Shown one piece after another: positions 18,875 to 24,458 of a stretch of 64,000 nt of DNA. The stretch is taken from assembly GCA_023151185.1 (NCBI GenBank), contig JAKLJL010000006.1, positions 124,001-188,000 of the forward strand, written 5' to 3'. Source of the stretch: Bacteroidota bacterium. Its GTDB lineage: Bacteria; Bacteroidota; JABWAT01. Position 1 is the first letter of the stretch. Each line of letters starts with the position of its first letter. Below the pieces are notes generated by a model that was given only the letters and a program-made list of their open reading frames with translations, was not told the origin of the DNA and searched no databases. The position numbers and the translations under genes are program-made.

Positions 18875-19531
18875 ATGAAACGATATGGTTTTCTTTTGGT
18901 TTTTTTAATGGTTTTAACTGAGGGGTTTGCCCAATCACCTCAGGGATTTCAGGTCTATACCTCTGCCGGTCAGTTTCGGGTGGATACGGGTACCGAAATC
19001 TGGAAGCCTGACTGGACGGCTGGAATTGCAGCTCCCGTTTGGACCCAGGATCCCTGGATGCTCCAGATTGCAGGTGAATACCGGTGGATGGATTACTTCG
19101 GAACAGGGCCTGAACCCCCCGCACCTTTTTATCGGGTAATAACTATAGATTCAGATCCAGGACACGAAGCAGCACTGGCACTCCGGCTTTCAAGGTCTCT
19201 CGGTATCTGGCAGGAGGTTCGGTTTCAGGCTTCAGCACAGGCCGGTTTGTATTCACTTTGGTTGTCAGAGGTAAAGGTAAAATATGAAGATCTGACCACC
19301 AGGCTAATGCCACCATTTGAGCCTGTTTCAACAGTTTCCATTCCTGAAATCAGAACAGGCGGACTGCAGTTTTCAGTCGGGGCGGGAGTATTTTATCCGG
19401 TCTGGAACGGAGTGGGCTTTACAGCAGAAACCCGCTGTGTTGCTCTTTCGGGGCAGAACTGGCTTTCAGAAAAAAATGCCTCCTCTGAGACTCAGTTCCG
19501 GATAGAGTTTAATCTGGGCCTTGCCTTTTAA
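18875..19531 (+). CDS. Secreted or outer-membrane beta-barrel-like protein, unknown family
   Basis: 218 residues. A clear signal peptide ends at GFAQ (cleavage near residue 20). The rest alternates polar and aromatic or aliphatic residues (GFQVYTSAGQFRVDTG, LALRLSRSLGIWQEVRFQASAQAG, GLQFSVGAGVFYPVWNGVGFTAETR) and ends in FNLGLAF, whose terminal Phe is typical of outer-membrane barrels. I do not recognise a named family. It sits after hoxW and has its own strong terminator, so it is probably a separate unit. Confidence 0.65.
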   Translation: MKRYGFLLVFLMVLTEGFAQSPQGFQVYTSAGQFRVDTGTEIWKPDWTAGIAAPVWTQDPWMLQIAGEYRWMDYFGTGPEPPAPFYRVITIDSDPGHEAALALRLSRSLGIWQEVRFQASAQAGLYSLWLSEVKVKYEDLTTRLMPPFEPVSTVSIPEIRTGGLQFSVGAGVFYPVWNGVGFTAETRCVALSGQNWLSEKNASSETQFRIEFNLGLAF

Positions 19532-19566
19532 CACAAAAAGCCGGGAACTTCCCGGCTTTTTGTGTT
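19530..19566 (+). terminator. Strong bidirectional-looking terminator
   Basis: A perfect 16-bp stem (AACACAAAAAGCCGGG with its complement) and a 5-base loop, ending in CTTTTTGTGTT. It begins inside the stop codon of the preceding gene and marks the edge where the AT-rich island starts. Confidence 0.92.
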
Positions 19567-19806
19567 AATTCGGACACAAGACCTGGCTGATTTTTAAACA
19601 ACACTGAATTCCAACATTTGAAATTAGACCAAGAATACAGGGTGGTTGGGAAGGTCGTGTACGTGGCCCGGAGGATAAAGGTATGATGTTTGAAAAAAAG
19701 AATTAGAAATGGCTTATTATATTTGTTTTAGGAACAAATGTTGTGGATTTGTTGTCTATAATGTAAATTTGTTGCTACTATCCTATAAGTATATTCGAGA
19801 AAAACC

Positions 19807-20031
19807 ATGCATGAAATAATGGAAATCAGAACGGATTTCTTATTTTCGACCCCTAATTTTTTAGAAGGCGCTGGTAATGTTATCAACCTTGCTGGCAATT
19901 ATCATGAATACGCAGTGTCAGAAACTGGTGATGAAGCTGATAAAAAAGCTATTAGAAACGATTTTTTTGTAATCGGAAAAGATTTGTTCAACGCCATGAT
20001 GATTTTTAAAAATCAACATATTGAAAAGTAG
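19807..20031 (+). CDS. Small conserved-type protein upstream of DUF2335 gene
   Basis: 74 residues, soluble and acidic, with no membrane helix. From memory, the core pattern SFLxGxxxxxxLxGxxxxYxxSxxxxEADxxAIRxDxxxxGxDL recurs in unnamed small proteins of about 70-80 residues in other phyla; here it reads FLEGAGNVINLAGNYHEYAVSETGDEADKKAIRNDFFVIGKDL. Its TAG stop lies 2 bases before the GTG start of the DUF2335 gene, so the two are almost certainly cotranscribed. Base composition is AT-rich, unlike the hox region. No function is known to me. Confidence 0.6.
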   Translation: MHEIMEIRTDFLFSTPNFLEGAGNVINLAGNYHEYAVSETGDEADKKAIRNDFFVIGKDLFNAMMIFKNQHIEK

Positions 20032-20033
20032 TA

Positions 20034-20540
20034 GTGAGTAATTTAGAAAAAAAAACAAGTGAGAGTGATTTTGTTTCATCTGAAGCAAATGAAATTCTTA
20101 AAGAGATAGATCCTAAATTACTTCAAGGTATTCCAGAGACTAAACGAAAAGACCTTGTAAAGGCTATTGTAGTGTCTGTTCAAAAAGTTACAAGTGGCCC
20201 CCTTCCAAACCCTGATGACCTTGTCCGCTATAATGAAATAATCCCAAATGGTGCTGATCGAATAATGAAGATGGCTGAGACTCAATTGAGTCACAGGATA
20301 AAACAAGAAAACAAGGTAATATCAAGTCAGGTTGGTCAAAGTTATTTGGGTCAGATTTTTGCTTTCGTAATTGGAACTACAACAATCCTTTCCGGTGCCT
20401 ATTGTATTCTGAGTGGTTATGAGTTTGCCGGGAGTTTTCTTGGTACCGCCGGACTTCTTGGTTTGGTGACTGCGTTTATTCAGGGCAGACAAAAAAATCG
20501 TCAAAATATTGAGTCCAAAAACCCATCCAATAGACGCTGA
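20034..20540 (+). CDS. DUF2335 family membrane protein
   Basis: 168 residues starting at GTG. The centre (SGPLPNPDDLVRYNEIIPNGADRIMKMAETQLSHRIKQE) is the DUF2335 signature. Two hydrophobic segments follow, about residues 105-122 and 126-145, then a basic tail, which predicts a two-helix inner-membrane protein with a cytoplasmic N-terminus. The family has no established role that I know of. Arginine codons here are CGA, CGC, CGT, AGA and AGG and never CGG, which differs strongly from the backbone. It is paired with the small upstream gene. Confidence 0.8.
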   Translation: MSNLEKKTSESDFVSSEANEILKEIDPKLLQGIPETKRKDLVKAIVVSVQKVTSGPLPNPDDLVRYNEIIPNGADRIMKMAETQLSHRIKQENKVISSQVGQSYLGQIFAFVIGTTTILSGAYCILSGYEFAGSFLGTAGLLGLVTAFIQGRQKNRQNIESKNPSNRR

Positions 20541-20651
20541 TTTCTAATTTTCCCACAATTTATCTACACCATTACTGAACACATTAACAGTAGGCCTCCC
20601 TTTCTTAACTTCACTTCCCCCGACAGGAAACCTTAACATAGTGGAGTAAGA

Positions 20652-20951
20652 ATGAAAGATCCCCAAATCTTTGCAATTGTTCTGGATGCAGATTCCCCCA
20701 ATCTGGACCTGGTGAAGGGAGACACTGTTGTCTTCAAGGTCAGTAATCAGTTTGCCTTCGGTGAGCTGGTTTTAGTTAAATCAGACCTCGGGCCGGTTGT
20801 AGTTAGTTTCCATGCCAAGCTGCAACAGGAAATTCTCGGTAAAGTTGTCCAGGTCAATCGAAGTGTTTGGCGACGTCCCCACAAGCTGGTCCTTCGTGAA
20901 TTTGGAAATACTCAAGCTGAGTCAACCCGGATCCCATCCCTCGCGTCTTAA
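20652..20951 (+). CDS. Stand-alone S24/LexA C-terminal-like domain, probably not catalytic
   Basis: 99 residues. The order DADSPNLDLVKGDTVVF - GELVLVK - GPVVVSFH - ILGKVVQVNR parallels the LexA/S24 peptidase fold (D-S-M-P...GD-V, G-D/E-L-V-L-V, V-K-R, ILG-V-V-V-R). Ser15 sits where the catalytic serine would be, but the catalytic lysine of the VKR strand is replaced by Ser-Phe-His. There is no N-terminal HTH. It may be a remnant of a phage-type repressor or an adapted partner domain. GGAG lies before the ATG. The match is by pattern only. Confidence 0.5.
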   Translation: MKDPQIFAIVLDADSPNLDLVKGDTVVFKVSNQFAFGELVLVKSDLGPVVVSFHAKLQQEILGKVVQVNRSVWRRPHKLVLREFGNTQAESTRIPSLAS

Positions 20952-20958
20952 CCTCAGC

Positions 20959-20994
20959 CCGGTGAATCTCCTCCAAGGTTCACCGGTTTTATTT
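20959..20994 (+). terminator. Rho-independent terminator
   Basis: An 8-bp perfect stem (CCGGTGAA/TTCACCGG) with a 12-base loop, followed by TTTTATTT. It ends the unit containing the S24-like gene. Confidence 0.88.
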
Positions 20995-21223
20995 CTTCCC
21001 GAATTTAACTTCGAATATTTTCCTTTAGCTGTGTAATAAAAACATAGCCTCGTATTAGTGAGCAACTTAATTTGCGCGCAGTTCTAACTGTTTAAGCAAT
21101 GAACCCGTAACTTGATGATTAAAAAAATGACATAAAATTACATTAATTAATATGAAAAAAGGAATAAATAACTTAATATTGTAACTCTGTCCCGAAAATA
21201 ATACTCTTAAAATAGGAGAACCA

Positions 21224-23998
21224 ATGTTTAAATTTAGCTTTGTTTTTTTTCTAACAATTTTTGTTAGCTTCAATTTATTTGCACAAGATCCAATAATGCC
21301 ACAATTTCAAAATGAGACACATTGGCTCGATCCTGGGGTAATTCTTGATAAATCAAATGTGGTCGTTGGTGAGTTTAACGGTGATGGTTGCGATGATGTT
21401 TTAATTTTGAATCCAATAACTAATGAGTGGTCTGCATATTATTCAAATGGTTTAAACGGTTTTAAAAGTGCAGTAGTCCTTTCTGGAGTCAATCAACCAA
21501 AGTATCAAGGTGTTTTAGTGGGTGACTTTAATGGTGATGGGGTTGATGATAAAATCGCACAGAAAAAAGGTACTGCAACTGATTTATCAGGTGGTTGGTG
21601 GGTGAACTTTTCGATTAGAAATGATAAAGGATTTAATTTTAACTTTAATAATCCAAGTGGAATTAATCAACGAGTCGTTGCCAATCCGTCATTGACAAAT
21701 ATTTATGGAAATGAAACAAATTTCTCCCTTAATTTGACGGGTGATTTTAATGGTGATGGAGGATCGGACCTTCTATATTGCCCACCAAGTGGAGTTTCCT
21801 CAGGAAGTTGGTATTTAATTTCGAATAAATATGTTGATGGAACAACTGGGACTTTTAACTCCCCACCGAGACTCGTTGCCACTGGACAAACACCGAGGTC
21901 AGGCGTTTTTGTTGCAGATCTTAATAATGATGGTTTTGATGATAAAATAACATATGTTCATTCAGGTACAAATGCTGGATGGTACCTTGCAAAATGGGAT
22001 AATGAATTATTGAAGTTTTCCAATGAAGTAAAAATAAGTAGCAATATAGTAATGGATCCAAACAAGGTGTTTGTTAAAGATTTTAATGGTGATGGATATG
22101 CTGACATTTTATCGTTCAAAGAGAATGGAACTGAAAAATATTGGCAGTTAATGGTAAATAATTTTACAACAGGAACTGAAAGGTTTTGGCTTCCTTGGGA
22201 TAGGGGCCCAGGTCAGGGTTGGAATGACGGTGTGTGGATTGGTGATTTTAACGGCGATGGATTTATGGATAAGGTAACTTTGGCAAATTCTAATGATCCT
22301 TATTGGCGTGGTTTTTGGGTGACCTTAAATAGTAATCCATCACCTAAACAGGTTTGCCTTTATTTTGAGACAATTAAGTTTCACTTTATTGACGACACTG
22401 GTCTATTAAATGATAATTGGATTGGTCAAGTTGATCCTCAAAAAACACCAGTAATCGGATGGGCACCGGAGATACCAACAACCACAGGATACTATAATTC
22501 TCAAAACGAAAATGTCTTATTAACCCAAATGAAAGTTATAAAAAAATTGGGAGTGGATTTTATTGCAACCGACGTAACGAATTGGTTTACACCAGATCAT
22601 GACTGGATGGGGGAAAGCGGGATTGGTGGACTTAATTCCTTTTACACAAATCCAAAATATTACACGAGTCGTGAAAAGGGAATTGGTTTTGATACTCCAG
22701 GATCAAAAGGTGCACTTTATACCGCAAAAGTATTACGGGATAATAGTGCAACTCTGAATTTAAAGTTTGCATTCATGTTTGGGGCTGAACGATGGGGACC
22801 GTCCTCTTTTGCATGGTATGATTCGCAAAATGATCCAAAAGCACCAACGGGATCCAGTTGGTGGACGAATTGGAATGATCAGGATTTGCGTTATAATAAT
22901 CTTATTAATTATGTTCGGGGTGAATTTATTTCAGATGCGAACTATTCTCAAATATATTATAAACACCTTGGAAAACCTTTGGTTCTTGAATACTTAGACA
23001 TGGGGCGTGATTTACCAGCATACAATTCCTGGGTTTCAAATAGTTCTGCAAGTATGAGAAAAAGAATTAAGTTGAATGATTTCACCCAAAGGGATGTTAT
23101 TTCATGGGGTGTAACTTATGGTTTGGTCGATGATTGGAATGTGTATACAAACAATTATTTATCTGGTCATGTTAATCGGGGAATTGATGTTCCAGGGCAA
23201 TTACAAAGAAAATCCTGGGGCTGGGGAGGAGGTGCCAAAGATATAGATGCCAATGCAAATACTCCCATTCCAGTAAATGCAGAAGTAATGTCAATAATGC
23301 CTGGATATAATAAATGGAATACCACTGAAGGATTACAAGTTGAACGACAGAATGGCGATTTTTATAGAAAACAATGGGAGCAGGTCCTTAAGAATGACCC
23401 CAAACTTGTTACAATTTGTGCGTTCAATGAGTGGAGTGAAGAATCGGCGATTGAAGGCTGTGTTGGTGAAAACGGTTGGAAGGACAGACACGGCACAGAC
23501 TGTTATGACTGGTACCTACAGATGACCCAAAAATACATCTATTTGTTTAAGTATGGTCAAATTCCAAACGATACTTACTTTACTGTAAATCGAAACACCT
23601 CGAAAATTTACTATAAAAATACTGTTGGGAACATAGTGGTCATTTCAAATTTTCCACATTTAAGAGCAGATATTAGTATTCCCAGCGAATGGTTGAATAA
23701 AAATGGGATTATCCTTGGACCTCCTCCAACATTAAAAAATATTTCCAAAAATAGTGCATATCCAAATCCTTTCAACCCTGAAACAACTATTAGTTTTGAA
23801 CTTTTTGCCCAAGAAAAGGTTAAGGTTATTATTTATAACATCATGGGTCAGGAGGTTGCAACATTGTTTAATGGAATGCTTCAACAAGGTAAAAATGAAG
23901 TGAGATTTGATGGTTCAAAATTAAGCTCAGGTGTTTATTTTTATAAGATAATTGCCGGAAATCATTCTTTGAGTCAAAAAATCATTCTTCTTAAGTAA
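21224..23998 (+). CDS. Secreted FG-GAP repeat protein with GH99/GH71-like domain and T9SS-type sorting domain
   Basis: 924 residues. A signal peptide ends at FAQ (about 21). Six calcium-type FG-GAP/VCBS motifs (GEFNGDG, GDFNGDG and similar) occur near residues 50, 100, 173, 231, 284 and 340, consistent with a beta-propeller. Residues of about 375-790 resemble GH99/GH71-type glycosidases, with GWAPEIPTTTGYY, FIATDVTNW, WGVTYGLVDDWN and FNEWSEESAIEG (from 734, Glu736). The last 80 residues (YPNPFNPETTISFEL...GVYFYKIIAG) are a type IX secretion sorting domain. A secreted polysaccharide-active enzyme is likely; the substrate is unknown. Composition is AT-rich. AGGAG precedes the start. Confidence 0.75.
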   Translation: MFKFSFVFFLTIFVSFNLFAQDPIMPQFQNETHWLDPGVILDKSNVVVGEFNGDGCDDVLILNPITNEWSAYYSNGLNGFKSAVVLSGVNQPKYQGVLVGDFNGDGVDDKIAQKKGTATDLSGGWWVNFSIRNDKGFNFNFNNPSGINQRVVANPSLTNIYGNETNFSLNLTGDFNGDGGSDLLYCPPSGVSSGSWYLISNKYVDGTTGTFNSPPRLVATGQTPRSGVFVADLNNDGFDDKITYVHSGTNAGWYLAKWDNELLKFSNEVKISSNIVMDPNKVFVKDFNGDGYADILSFKENGTEKYWQLMVNNFTTGTERFWLPWDRGPGQGWNDGVWIGDFNGDGFMDKVTLANSNDPYWRGFWVTLNSNPSPKQVCLYFETIKFHFIDDTGLLNDNWIGQVDPQKTPVIGWAPEIPTTTGYYNSQNENVLLTQMKVIKKLGVDFIATDVTNWFTPDHDWMGESGIGGLNSFYTNPKYYTSREKGIGFDTPGSKGALYTAKVLRDNSATLNLKFAFMFGAERWGPSSFAWYDSQNDPKAPTGSSWWTNWNDQDLRYNNLINYVRGEFISDANYSQIYYKHLGKPLVLEYLDMGRDLPAYNSWVSNSSASMRKRIKLNDFTQRDVISWGVTYGLVDDWNVYTNNYLSGHVNRGIDVPGQLQRKSWGWGGGAKDIDANANTPIPVNAEVMSIMPGYNKWNTTEGLQVERQNGDFYRKQWEQVLKNDPKLVTICAFNEWSEESAIEGCVGENGWKDRHGTDCYDWYLQMTQKYIYLFKYGQIPNDTYFTVNRNTSKIYYKNTVGNIVVISNFPHLRADISIPSEWLNKNGIILGPPPTLKNISKNSAYPNPFNPETTISFELFAQEKVKVIIYNIMGQEVATLFNGMLQQGKNEVRFDGSKLSSGVYFYKIIAGNHSLSQKIILLK

Positions 23999-24000
23999 CT

Positions 24001-24039
24001 TAAAAAACGAAAAGGCCCGCATTTCTGCGAGCCTTTTCG
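24001..24039 (-). terminator. Terminator downstream of ssrA (usable from both strands)
   Basis: A long imperfect hairpin: CGAAAAGGC/GCCTTTTCG with an inner CGCA/TGCG. On the minus strand it is followed by GTTTTTTA, ending ssrA transcription. On the plus strand a T-rich stretch follows, so it may also end the upstream secreted-protein gene. Confidence 0.85.
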
Positions 24040-24112
24040 TATCTTTTCAGATAAAATTGACACTTATACTGACACCTACTTGTCGTAAGTTCAATAAAAA
24101 CAAGCATCATTG
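24003..24112. repeat. Direct repeat copy A: ssrA 3' flank
   Basis: This 110-base stretch matches copy B (25511-25620) at roughly four of five positions by eye, including GACACCTACT and TAAGTTCAATAAAAACAAG. Each copy contains a terminator hairpin and ends exactly at the 3' end of a stable RNA gene on the minus strand. Confidence 0.8.
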
Positions 24113-24458
24113 TGGAGGTGGCGGGACTTGAACCCGCGTCCGGAAAGGTACCCATCAAGACATCTACGTGTGTAGGAGGTGTTTAAGTGTCAGATTTTCC
24201 CCGGACAGCTCCAACCGCTGAAAATCCCATCTCCTGATCTTATCTCACTGTACGGAGCGGGCAGTGAGAGCAGTCCGCCAAAATGACGCTGTTAAAATCC
24301 CGGCAGACAGAAGACCGTAACAGCGCGCTGCTTTTAATTAAGCTGCGTAAGCGTAGTTGTTTTCAGCATTTAAGCTGTACCGTCTTTTTTAAGAGCGTTT
24401 CGGTGAACTCTACACGCTTTCCTGACCAATACTCAACCCGTCGAAACCTGTCACCCCC
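24113..24458 (-). ncRNA. ssrA: Transfer-messenger RNA (tmRNA)
   Basis: A one-piece tmRNA of 346 nt. Its 5' end GGGGGTG pairs with CACCTCC at the 3' end with one G-U, and TTCGACGGG near the 5' end is the standard D-like region. The 3' T arm GCGGG-TTCAAGT-CCCGC is intact. The tag frame (24338-24367 on the minus strand) reads AENNYAYAA then TAA-TTAA. CCA is not encoded. It rescues ribosomes stalled on broken mRNA and tags their products for proteolysis. The 5' end is only two bases past the stop of the preceding gene, so its promoter lies in that coding region or it is processed from a longer transcript. Confidence 0.95.

What the first reader, a model, noticed from the sequence alone, without database searches (positions are those of the whole stretch)
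19807..20540. Paired small ORF and DUF2335 membrane protein: candidate two-gene system
A 74-residue soluble protein and a two-helix membrane protein are separated by two bases inside an acquired island. The small protein has a recurring pattern (FLxG...Y...EADxxAIRxDxxxxGxDL). A small soluble partner coupled to a small membrane protein is a layout also seen in toxin-antitoxin and abortive-infection modules. No such role has been assigned to DUF2335 that I know of.
Basis: inference. Interest (0 to 1): 0.6.

Follow-up and report, generated by a model that had tools for sequence, protein, structure and literature searches.

The report
Universal two-gene DUF2335 membrane module
A tiny soluble protein and a two-helix membrane protein that nobody has studied are encoded side by side here and in nearly every other bacterium and virus of bacteria that carries the membrane protein, which makes them a real two-part system, most likely a membrane-acting toxin or phage-defence switch with its controller, although its activity has not been tested.

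Summary
In detail: a 74-aa ORF (19807-20031) and a DUF2335 gene (20034-20540, GTG start), two bases apart, lie in a low-GC segment next to ssrA that two congeners lack.

The pairing is near-universal. A profile of the small protein finds it directly upstream, same strand, in 139 of 150 DUF2335 loci from about 20 phyla and phages. It hits nowhere else in those loci. A profile from seven seeds, tested on 110 held-out loci (1.04 Mb), found it adjacent in 91 and elsewhere never. A fresh test scored 6/6. No Pfam, NCBIfam or PADLOC model covers the small protein, and it is often unannotated.

Most genes of the pair overlap. In phages the pair sits beside lysis genes, the integrase or tailspike genes, as lysogenic-conversion genes do. 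The small gene sometimes survives where DUF2335 is broken or lost; DUF2335 lacks the small gene only in one divergent lineage. In one genome the small domain is fused to a Panacea/SocA-like (sub-threshold) antitoxin-type domain.

Best reading: an antitoxin/sensor plus membrane-effector module, working like RexAB or membrane-acting type II TA systems. Pairing is shown; physical interaction, toxicity and phage defence are inferred. Flanking genes show no clear defence-island signal.

The parts
19807..20031 (+). Small partner, 74 aa, soluble, family undescribed; consensus FLxGxGSvlnLxG...(E)AD..AL..DW..VG.DI..A; proposed antitoxin/sensor
   Evidence: coordinates; profile hit E 8e-25 (L001); no Pfam/PADLOC/NCBIfam match; only phrog_26284 at E 0.068; family alignment
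20034..20540 (+). DUF2335 membrane protein, 168 aa, GTG start, proposed membrane effector
   Evidence: PF10097 58.6 bits; phrog_3996 (membrane protein, 'moron' category) E 8.6e-34
20205..20354 (+). PF10097 core (residues 58-107), cytosolic motif GPLPxPxxLxxYxxIxPxGAxRIxxMAExQxxHRxxxE, ending just before the first membrane span
   Evidence: alignment
20355..20480 (+). Two predicted transmembrane helices (residues 108-126 and 131-149)
   Evidence: hydropathy (1.92 and 1.78); model of the relative L078 shows a long helix and a hairpin helix in the matching region, mean pLDDT mostly above 90 there
19541..24111 (.). Low-GC acquired segment holding the pair, between the terminator of the upstream gene and the 3' end of ssrA; left edge approximate
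   Evidence: GC; tmRNA; pair absent between the same flanks in two congeners

Best explanation
The pair is an obligate, mobile two-gene module. The small soluble protein is the controller (antitoxin and/or sensor) of DUF2335, a small inner-membrane protein with a conserved cytosolic arm and a two-helix hairpin. In the resting state the co-translated small protein binds the arm and keeps the hairpin assembly inactive. When it is removed or altered, for example during infection by another phage, DUF2335 assemblies permeabilise or depolarise the membrane and stop growth or abort the infection. Shown: the pairing, gene order, overlap, membrane topology by hydropathy, mobility and asymmetric loss. 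Inferred: binding, toxicity, trigger, phage defence.
For: Pairing: 139 of 150 loci have the partner directly upstream on the same strand, 126 of them at E<1e-3; no hit elsewhere below E 0.1. Held-out test: 91 of 110 loci, none elsewhere in 1.04 Mb. Fresh phage/plasmid test: 6 of 6. A blind partner scan of IMG/VR returned one locus, and it carries DUF2335 next to the partner. Translational coupling: median gap -8 bases, 79 of 126 overlap. Temperate-phage positions: after holin/lysin in Lactococcus, Streptococcus and Staphylococcus phages (integrase close downstream in the last), beside the integrase in MD8, beside tailspike/tail-protein genes in enterobacterial prophages. Patchiness: 22 of 296 genomes of the phylum, and phylum labels are scattered on the DUF2335 tree (29 changes against a minimum of 19). 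Asymmetric loss: partner kept with in-frame stops in DUF2335 (L010/L140, L096, L085) or with DUF2335 gone (G238:C3; an E. coli O121 remnant), while intact DUF2335 without partner occurs only in one divergent lineage. Fusion of the partner domain behind a SocA/Panacea-like domain in G214, upstream of DUF2335. Precedent: in multidomain Panacea antitoxins the other domain neutralises the toxin and Panacea is proposed as a sensor, and several Panacea toxins with C-terminal membrane helices depolarise membranes (PMC8832971, PMC10440598).
Against: No toxicity, binding or phage data exist in the sources searched. The partner has no recognisable DNA-binding domain, unlike many type II antitoxins. PADLOC has no model for either protein and only a minority of flanking genes match defence models (DarT twice, other families once). 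The Panacea-like match is below Pfam's cutoff (15.5 against 25.7 bits), rests on a single fusion, and the fold of that fusion was predicted poorly (pLDDT 57). The model of the read-through tandem has pTM 0.46, so it shows no interface. A set of divergent DUF2335 genes in family f35 (L016, L018, L020, L021, L024) lacks a visible partner. Some partner remnants without DUF2335 are themselves truncated (G005, G257).
Confidence: 0.5

Rival explanations
1. RexAB-like two-component exclusion: neither protein is toxic alone; the small protein senses a superinfecting phage and opens the DUF2335 channel, so it is an activator and not an antitoxin.
For: Soluble plus small membrane protein expressed from a prophage is the layout of lambda RexAB, Sbash gp30/gp31, CarolAnn gp44/gp43 and Butters gp30/gp31; CarolAnn gp43 or gp44 alone is not toxic (PMC7542560, PMC6426606). 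Positions in temperate phages.
Against: Those membrane partners have four spans, DUF2335 has two; no sequence relation was tested. Persistence of the partner beside broken DUF2335 fits an antitoxin somewhat better.
Confidence: 0.2
2. Superinfection exclusion at entry: the pair forms a stable membrane complex that blocks DNA injection or a receptor, without killing the cell; the small protein is a structural subunit.
For: Lysogenic-conversion positions and the PHROG 'moron, auxiliary metabolic gene and host takeover' category; small membrane proteins often act this way (general knowledge).
Against: Many carriers are chromosomal loci without visible prophage genes; conservation across some 20 phyla is broad for an entry block, which is usually phage-group specific.
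Confidence: 0.14
3. Lysis-timing or other phage house function (antiholin-like regulator) spread into genomes by prophages.
For: The pair follows holin and lysin in Lactococcus, Streptococcus and Staphylococcus phages and lies near a glucosaminidase gene in five viral contigs.
Against: In most cellular loci neighbours are unrelated housekeeping genes; the window pair lies in a segment with no lysis gene.
Confidence: 0.06
4. Accessory membrane-stress or envelope complex with no role in phage conflict.
For: No direct evidence for conflict; one paper lists a DUF2335 gene among Dickeya genes whose mutants changed maceration (PMC8809351).
Against: Patchy presence (7% of sampled genomes of the phylum), phages and plasmids as carriers, scattered phylogeny.
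Confidence: 0.1

Closest known systems
DUF2335 / PF10097 and phrog_3996
   Same: The membrane protein is a member by score (58.6 bits; E 8.6e-34).
   Different: Those entries describe one protein of unknown function; neither records the obligate small partner.
Lambda RexAB and the RexAB-like pairs of Sbash, CarolAnn and Butters
   Same: Two adjacent genes, soluble sensor plus small membrane protein, carried by prophages.
   Different: Membrane partners there have four spans and the soluble partners resemble DUF4747; here two spans and a 65-80 aa partner with another motif.
Panacea (PanAT) toxin-antitoxin systems with membrane toxins
   Same: Antitoxin-first order; toxins with a charged N-terminal region and C-terminal membrane helices; one partner domain fused to a Panacea-like domain.
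   Different: The window's partner has no Panacea domain; no toxin or antitoxin activity is known; whether published PanT toxins include DUF2335 could not be checked (supplements not available).
RosmerTA (RmrT/RmrA)
   Same: Two genes, a membrane-depolarising toxin, phage-encoded.
   Different: The antitoxin there is an ImmA/IrrE-type protease; not present in this pair (one Leptospira plasmid has such a gene downstream of DUF2335, L035).

Membership tests
DUF2335 (PF10097) | Profile match above the gathering score | tested here: met
   58.6 bits against 25
New small-partner family (this work) | Profile match and position directly upstream of DUF2335 | tested here: met
   Window partner hit as L001, E 8e-25; held-out test 91/110 adjacent, 0 elsewhere
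Type II toxin-antitoxin system | Two adjacent, often overlapping genes, small antitoxin first | tested here: met
   median gap -8, 79 of 126 overlap; window gap +2
Type II toxin-antitoxin system | Toxin does not persist without its antitoxin | tested here: inconclusive
   Partner near-universal; several loci keep the partner with broken or lost DUF2335; five loci of one divergent lineage lack a visible partner
Type II toxin-antitoxin system | Toxin inhibits growth; antitoxin binds and neutralises it | not testable with these tools
   Needs expression and binding assays
RexAB-like exclusion systems | Four-span membrane protein and DUF4747-like soluble protein | tested here: not met
   Two spans; no Pfam match in the partner
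Panacea (PanAT) systems | Antitoxin carries a Panacea (PF13274) domain | tested here: not met
   No match in the window's partner; only one relative has a sub-threshold match (E 0.034)
Known defence systems in PADLOC 2023 | Match to a PADLOC model | tested here: not met
   Only a chance-level Cas10 match, E 0.0024

The most novel reading that the evidence does not exclude
The pair founds a new, very widespread class of membrane-acting toxin-antitoxin/anti-phage module: the small family is a new kind of antitoxin or infection sensor without DNA-binding domain that gates a two-helix DUF2335 pore, present in some 20 bacterial phyla and many temperate phages and overlooked because the small gene is often unannotated.
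Probability: 0.4. Interest if true: 0.8.

Novelty: new variant of a known kind. Interest (0 to 1): 0.58.

Why it matters
DUF2335 is a widespread protein of unknown function carried by phages, plasmids and bacteria from about 20 phyla; only two papers in the library of 5.4 million name it, neither assigns it a function, and one is a misprint. An obligate, usually unannotated partner turns an orphan membrane protein into a testable two-gene system and explains why expressing DUF2335 alone could mislead. If the pair is a membrane TA or defence module it would be among the widely distributed uncharacterised ones, and E. coli prophages carry a copy that can be tested at once.

Tried and rejected
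Function by family search: no model for the partner in Pfam, NCBIfam or PADLOC; weak phrog_26284 at E 0.068. Solved structures: nothing meaningful for partner or DUF2335. Fold search of the tandem model: no PDB match below E 2; in BFVD only two significant hits, unnamed there. Interface prediction: the in-frame read-through of a relative's two ORFs gave good local confidence but pTM 0.46, and the helix 41-106 runs through the artificial junction, so no interface is claimed. Panacea-partner fusion fold: pLDDT 57, discarded. Defence-island enrichment: 138 flanking genes scanned, few hits; no distal control was run. att repeats around the window segment: none convincing. 'DUF2335 phospholipase' in PMC6267618 is rejected as a misprint: its text says DUF2235. 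Alignments A3 and A5 held sequences I had composed myself (consensus-like, not real); they were used in no search and replaced by A4 and A6.

Full report
What is there. The window encodes a 74-residue protein at 19807-20031 and a 168-residue protein at 20034-20540, both on the plus strand, separated by two bases. The second is a DUF2335 protein (PF10097, 58.6 bits) and matches phrog_3996, a phage 'moron' membrane protein. It has two hydrophobic spans; the small protein has none. The small protein matches no Pfam, NCBIfam or PADLOC model.

Where it lies. GC is 0.31-0.40 over most of 19500-24000, against about 0.46-0.52 on either side. The segment ends at the 3' end of the tmRNA gene, 24112-24458 on the minus strand, a classical type of integration point for islands (general knowledge). 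In two genomes of the same genus the [NiFe] hydrogenase genes and the tmRNA, tRNA-Ser and ATP-synthase block are in the same order, with no DUF2335 pair between them. DUF2335 is absent from both congeners and from the family relative sampled. The insertion reading is well supported, but no integrase or att repeat was found.

Is the pair real? I collected 150 DUF2335 loci: own-phylum genomes, phages and plasmids, IMG/VR and GTDB genomes (350 relatives found, 80 kept). A few are duplicates of one genome. A profile started from eight upstream ORFs and iterated found the partner directly upstream on the same strand in 139 loci (126 at E<1e-3, 133 at E<0.1), with no hit elsewhere in those loci below E 0.1. 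In a held-out test a profile from seven seeds, applied to 110 other loci (1.04 Mb), found it adjacent in 91 and elsewhere in none. Six further phage and plasmid loci, fetched afterwards, all had it at E 1.7e-5 or better. Of the 11 loci without a hit, two are cut near the contig start (L123, L126), four show a weakly similar small ORF in the same place by eye (L013, L017, L027, L028), and five belong to divergent DUF2335 genes of one family, f35 (L016, L018, L020, L021, L024; L017's candidate overlaps DUF2335). In the reverse direction, a partner search of 296 genomes gave mostly places next to DUF2335, one of them next to a DUF2335 too divergent for the Pfam model (G084); the exceptions are truncated or solitary copies (G005, G257, G238:C3) and one likely chance hit (G040). 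A partner scan of IMG/VR returned a single locus, and it carries DUF2335. The partner is often unannotated, as in Klebsiella phage BUCT711 and an Enterobacter plasmid.

Anatomy. The partner is 65-80 residues in most loci, with two conserved blocks: FLxGxGSvlnLxG and (E)AD..AL..DW..VG.DI..A. D45, D52 and G57 are invariant in a diverse set, and the position of F53 is W in nearly all others. DUF2335 has a variable N-terminus, the core GPLPxPxxLxxYxxIxPxGAxRIxxMAExQxxHRxxxE and then the hairpin. Using the likeliest start codons, the genes overlap in 79 of 126 loci (median gap -8). A model of a relative's tandem, made by reading through the one stop between its two in-frame ORFs, is all-helical with mean pLDDT 84.6 but pTM 0.46. 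It supports the helical hairpin and says nothing about an interface. No solved fold matches.

Context. In phages the pair lies where lysogenic-conversion genes lie: after holin/lysin in Lactococcus, Streptococcus and Staphylococcus phages, beside the integrase in Pseudomonas phage MD8 and Staphylococcus phage IME-SA4, and beside tailspike or tail-protein genes in enterobacterial phages and prophages. Across loci, integrases recur near the pair (10 loci) and phage repressor-type S24 peptidases in six. DUF2335 occurs in 22 of 296 sampled genomes of the phylum. On a tree of 81 DUF2335 proteins phylum labels need 29 changes against a minimum of 19, consistent with transfer although not proof. Among 138 nearest flanking genes, PADLOC matches were few (DarT twice, others once) and Pfam showed four integrases among mostly housekeeping genes.

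Clues to roles. First, asymmetry: the partner persists beside DUF2335 genes broken by in-frame stops (L010/L140, L096, L085), alone before a DNA methyltransferase in G238:C3, and as a remnant in E. coli O121 where DUF2335 is gone. The opposite state, intact DUF2335 without partner, is seen only in the divergent f35 set, although the collection was made with DUF2335 as bait and should have favoured it. Second, in G214 the partner domain (E 7.6e-15 to its profile) is fused to the C-terminus of a domain that weakly matches SocA_Panacea (E 0.034, below cutoff; hhalign E 0.0018, probability 15%), upstream of and overlapping DUF2335. In published multidomain Panacea antitoxins the added domain neutralises the toxin while Panacea is proposed as a sensor, and several Panacea toxins with membrane helices depolarise cells (PMC8832971, PMC10440598). 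This points to the small protein as the neutralising or sensing partner, but it is one case below threshold.

Mechanism. I therefore favour a controller-plus-membrane-effector module: the small protein binds the cytosolic arm of DUF2335 and holds it inactive, and loss or alteration of the small protein lets DUF2335 hairpins disturb the membrane. Pairing is shown beyond doubt; binding, toxicity, trigger and phage defence are inferred. The chief rival is a RexAB-like pair in which the small protein activates the membrane partner; known examples are two-gene prophage systems with a soluble and a four-span membrane protein (PMC7542560, PMC6426606).

Novelty. Only two papers in the library name DUF2335. 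One is a misprint for DUF2235; the other lists a gene without function. The small family and its obligate pairing appear undescribed in the sources held. As a system it is a new variant of a known kind, membrane-acting two-gene TA or exclusion modules, until an assay shows otherwise.

Noticed in passing
window 24112-24458: The low-GC segment ends at the 3' end of the tmRNA (ssrA) gene, a typical island integration point, but no integrase or att repeat was found.
   Followed up: partly
window 21224-23998: Same segment: a 924-aa secreted protein with FG-GAP repeats, a weak glycosyl hydrolase 99 match and a Por secretion tail.
   Followed up: no
window 20652-20951: A 99-aa ORF after the pair with no Pfam or NCBIfam match; by eye it recalls an S24/LexA-type C-terminal domain.
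   Followed up: no
L192 4650-5327 (G214:C38): Partner domain fused behind a sub-threshold SocA/Panacea-like domain, overlapping a DUF2335 gene; distant relatives of that N-terminal domain are fused to DUF488.
   Followed up: partly
L152 8917-9078, L029 4602-4760, L203 3057-3218, L151 6215-6355: Enterobacterial copies are followed by a third small ORF, often annotated 'transmembrane anchored protein', which remains in E. coli O121 where DUF2335 is lost.
   Followed up: no
L016, L018, L020, L021, L024: One family (f35) has divergent DUF2335-like genes without a visible partner; the partner may be lost or replaced there.
   Followed up: partly
L168 (G238:C3): A solitary partner is followed directly by a DNA cytosine methyltransferase instead of DUF2335.
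   Followed up: no
L069 1592-2119 and 3860-4504: A viral contig carries two DUF2335 copies, each with a partner.
   Followed up: no
PMC6267618 Table 1: 'DUF2335 (phospholipase)' is a misprint for DUF2235, which the paper's text uses; it could mislead annotation of DUF2335.
   Followed up: yes
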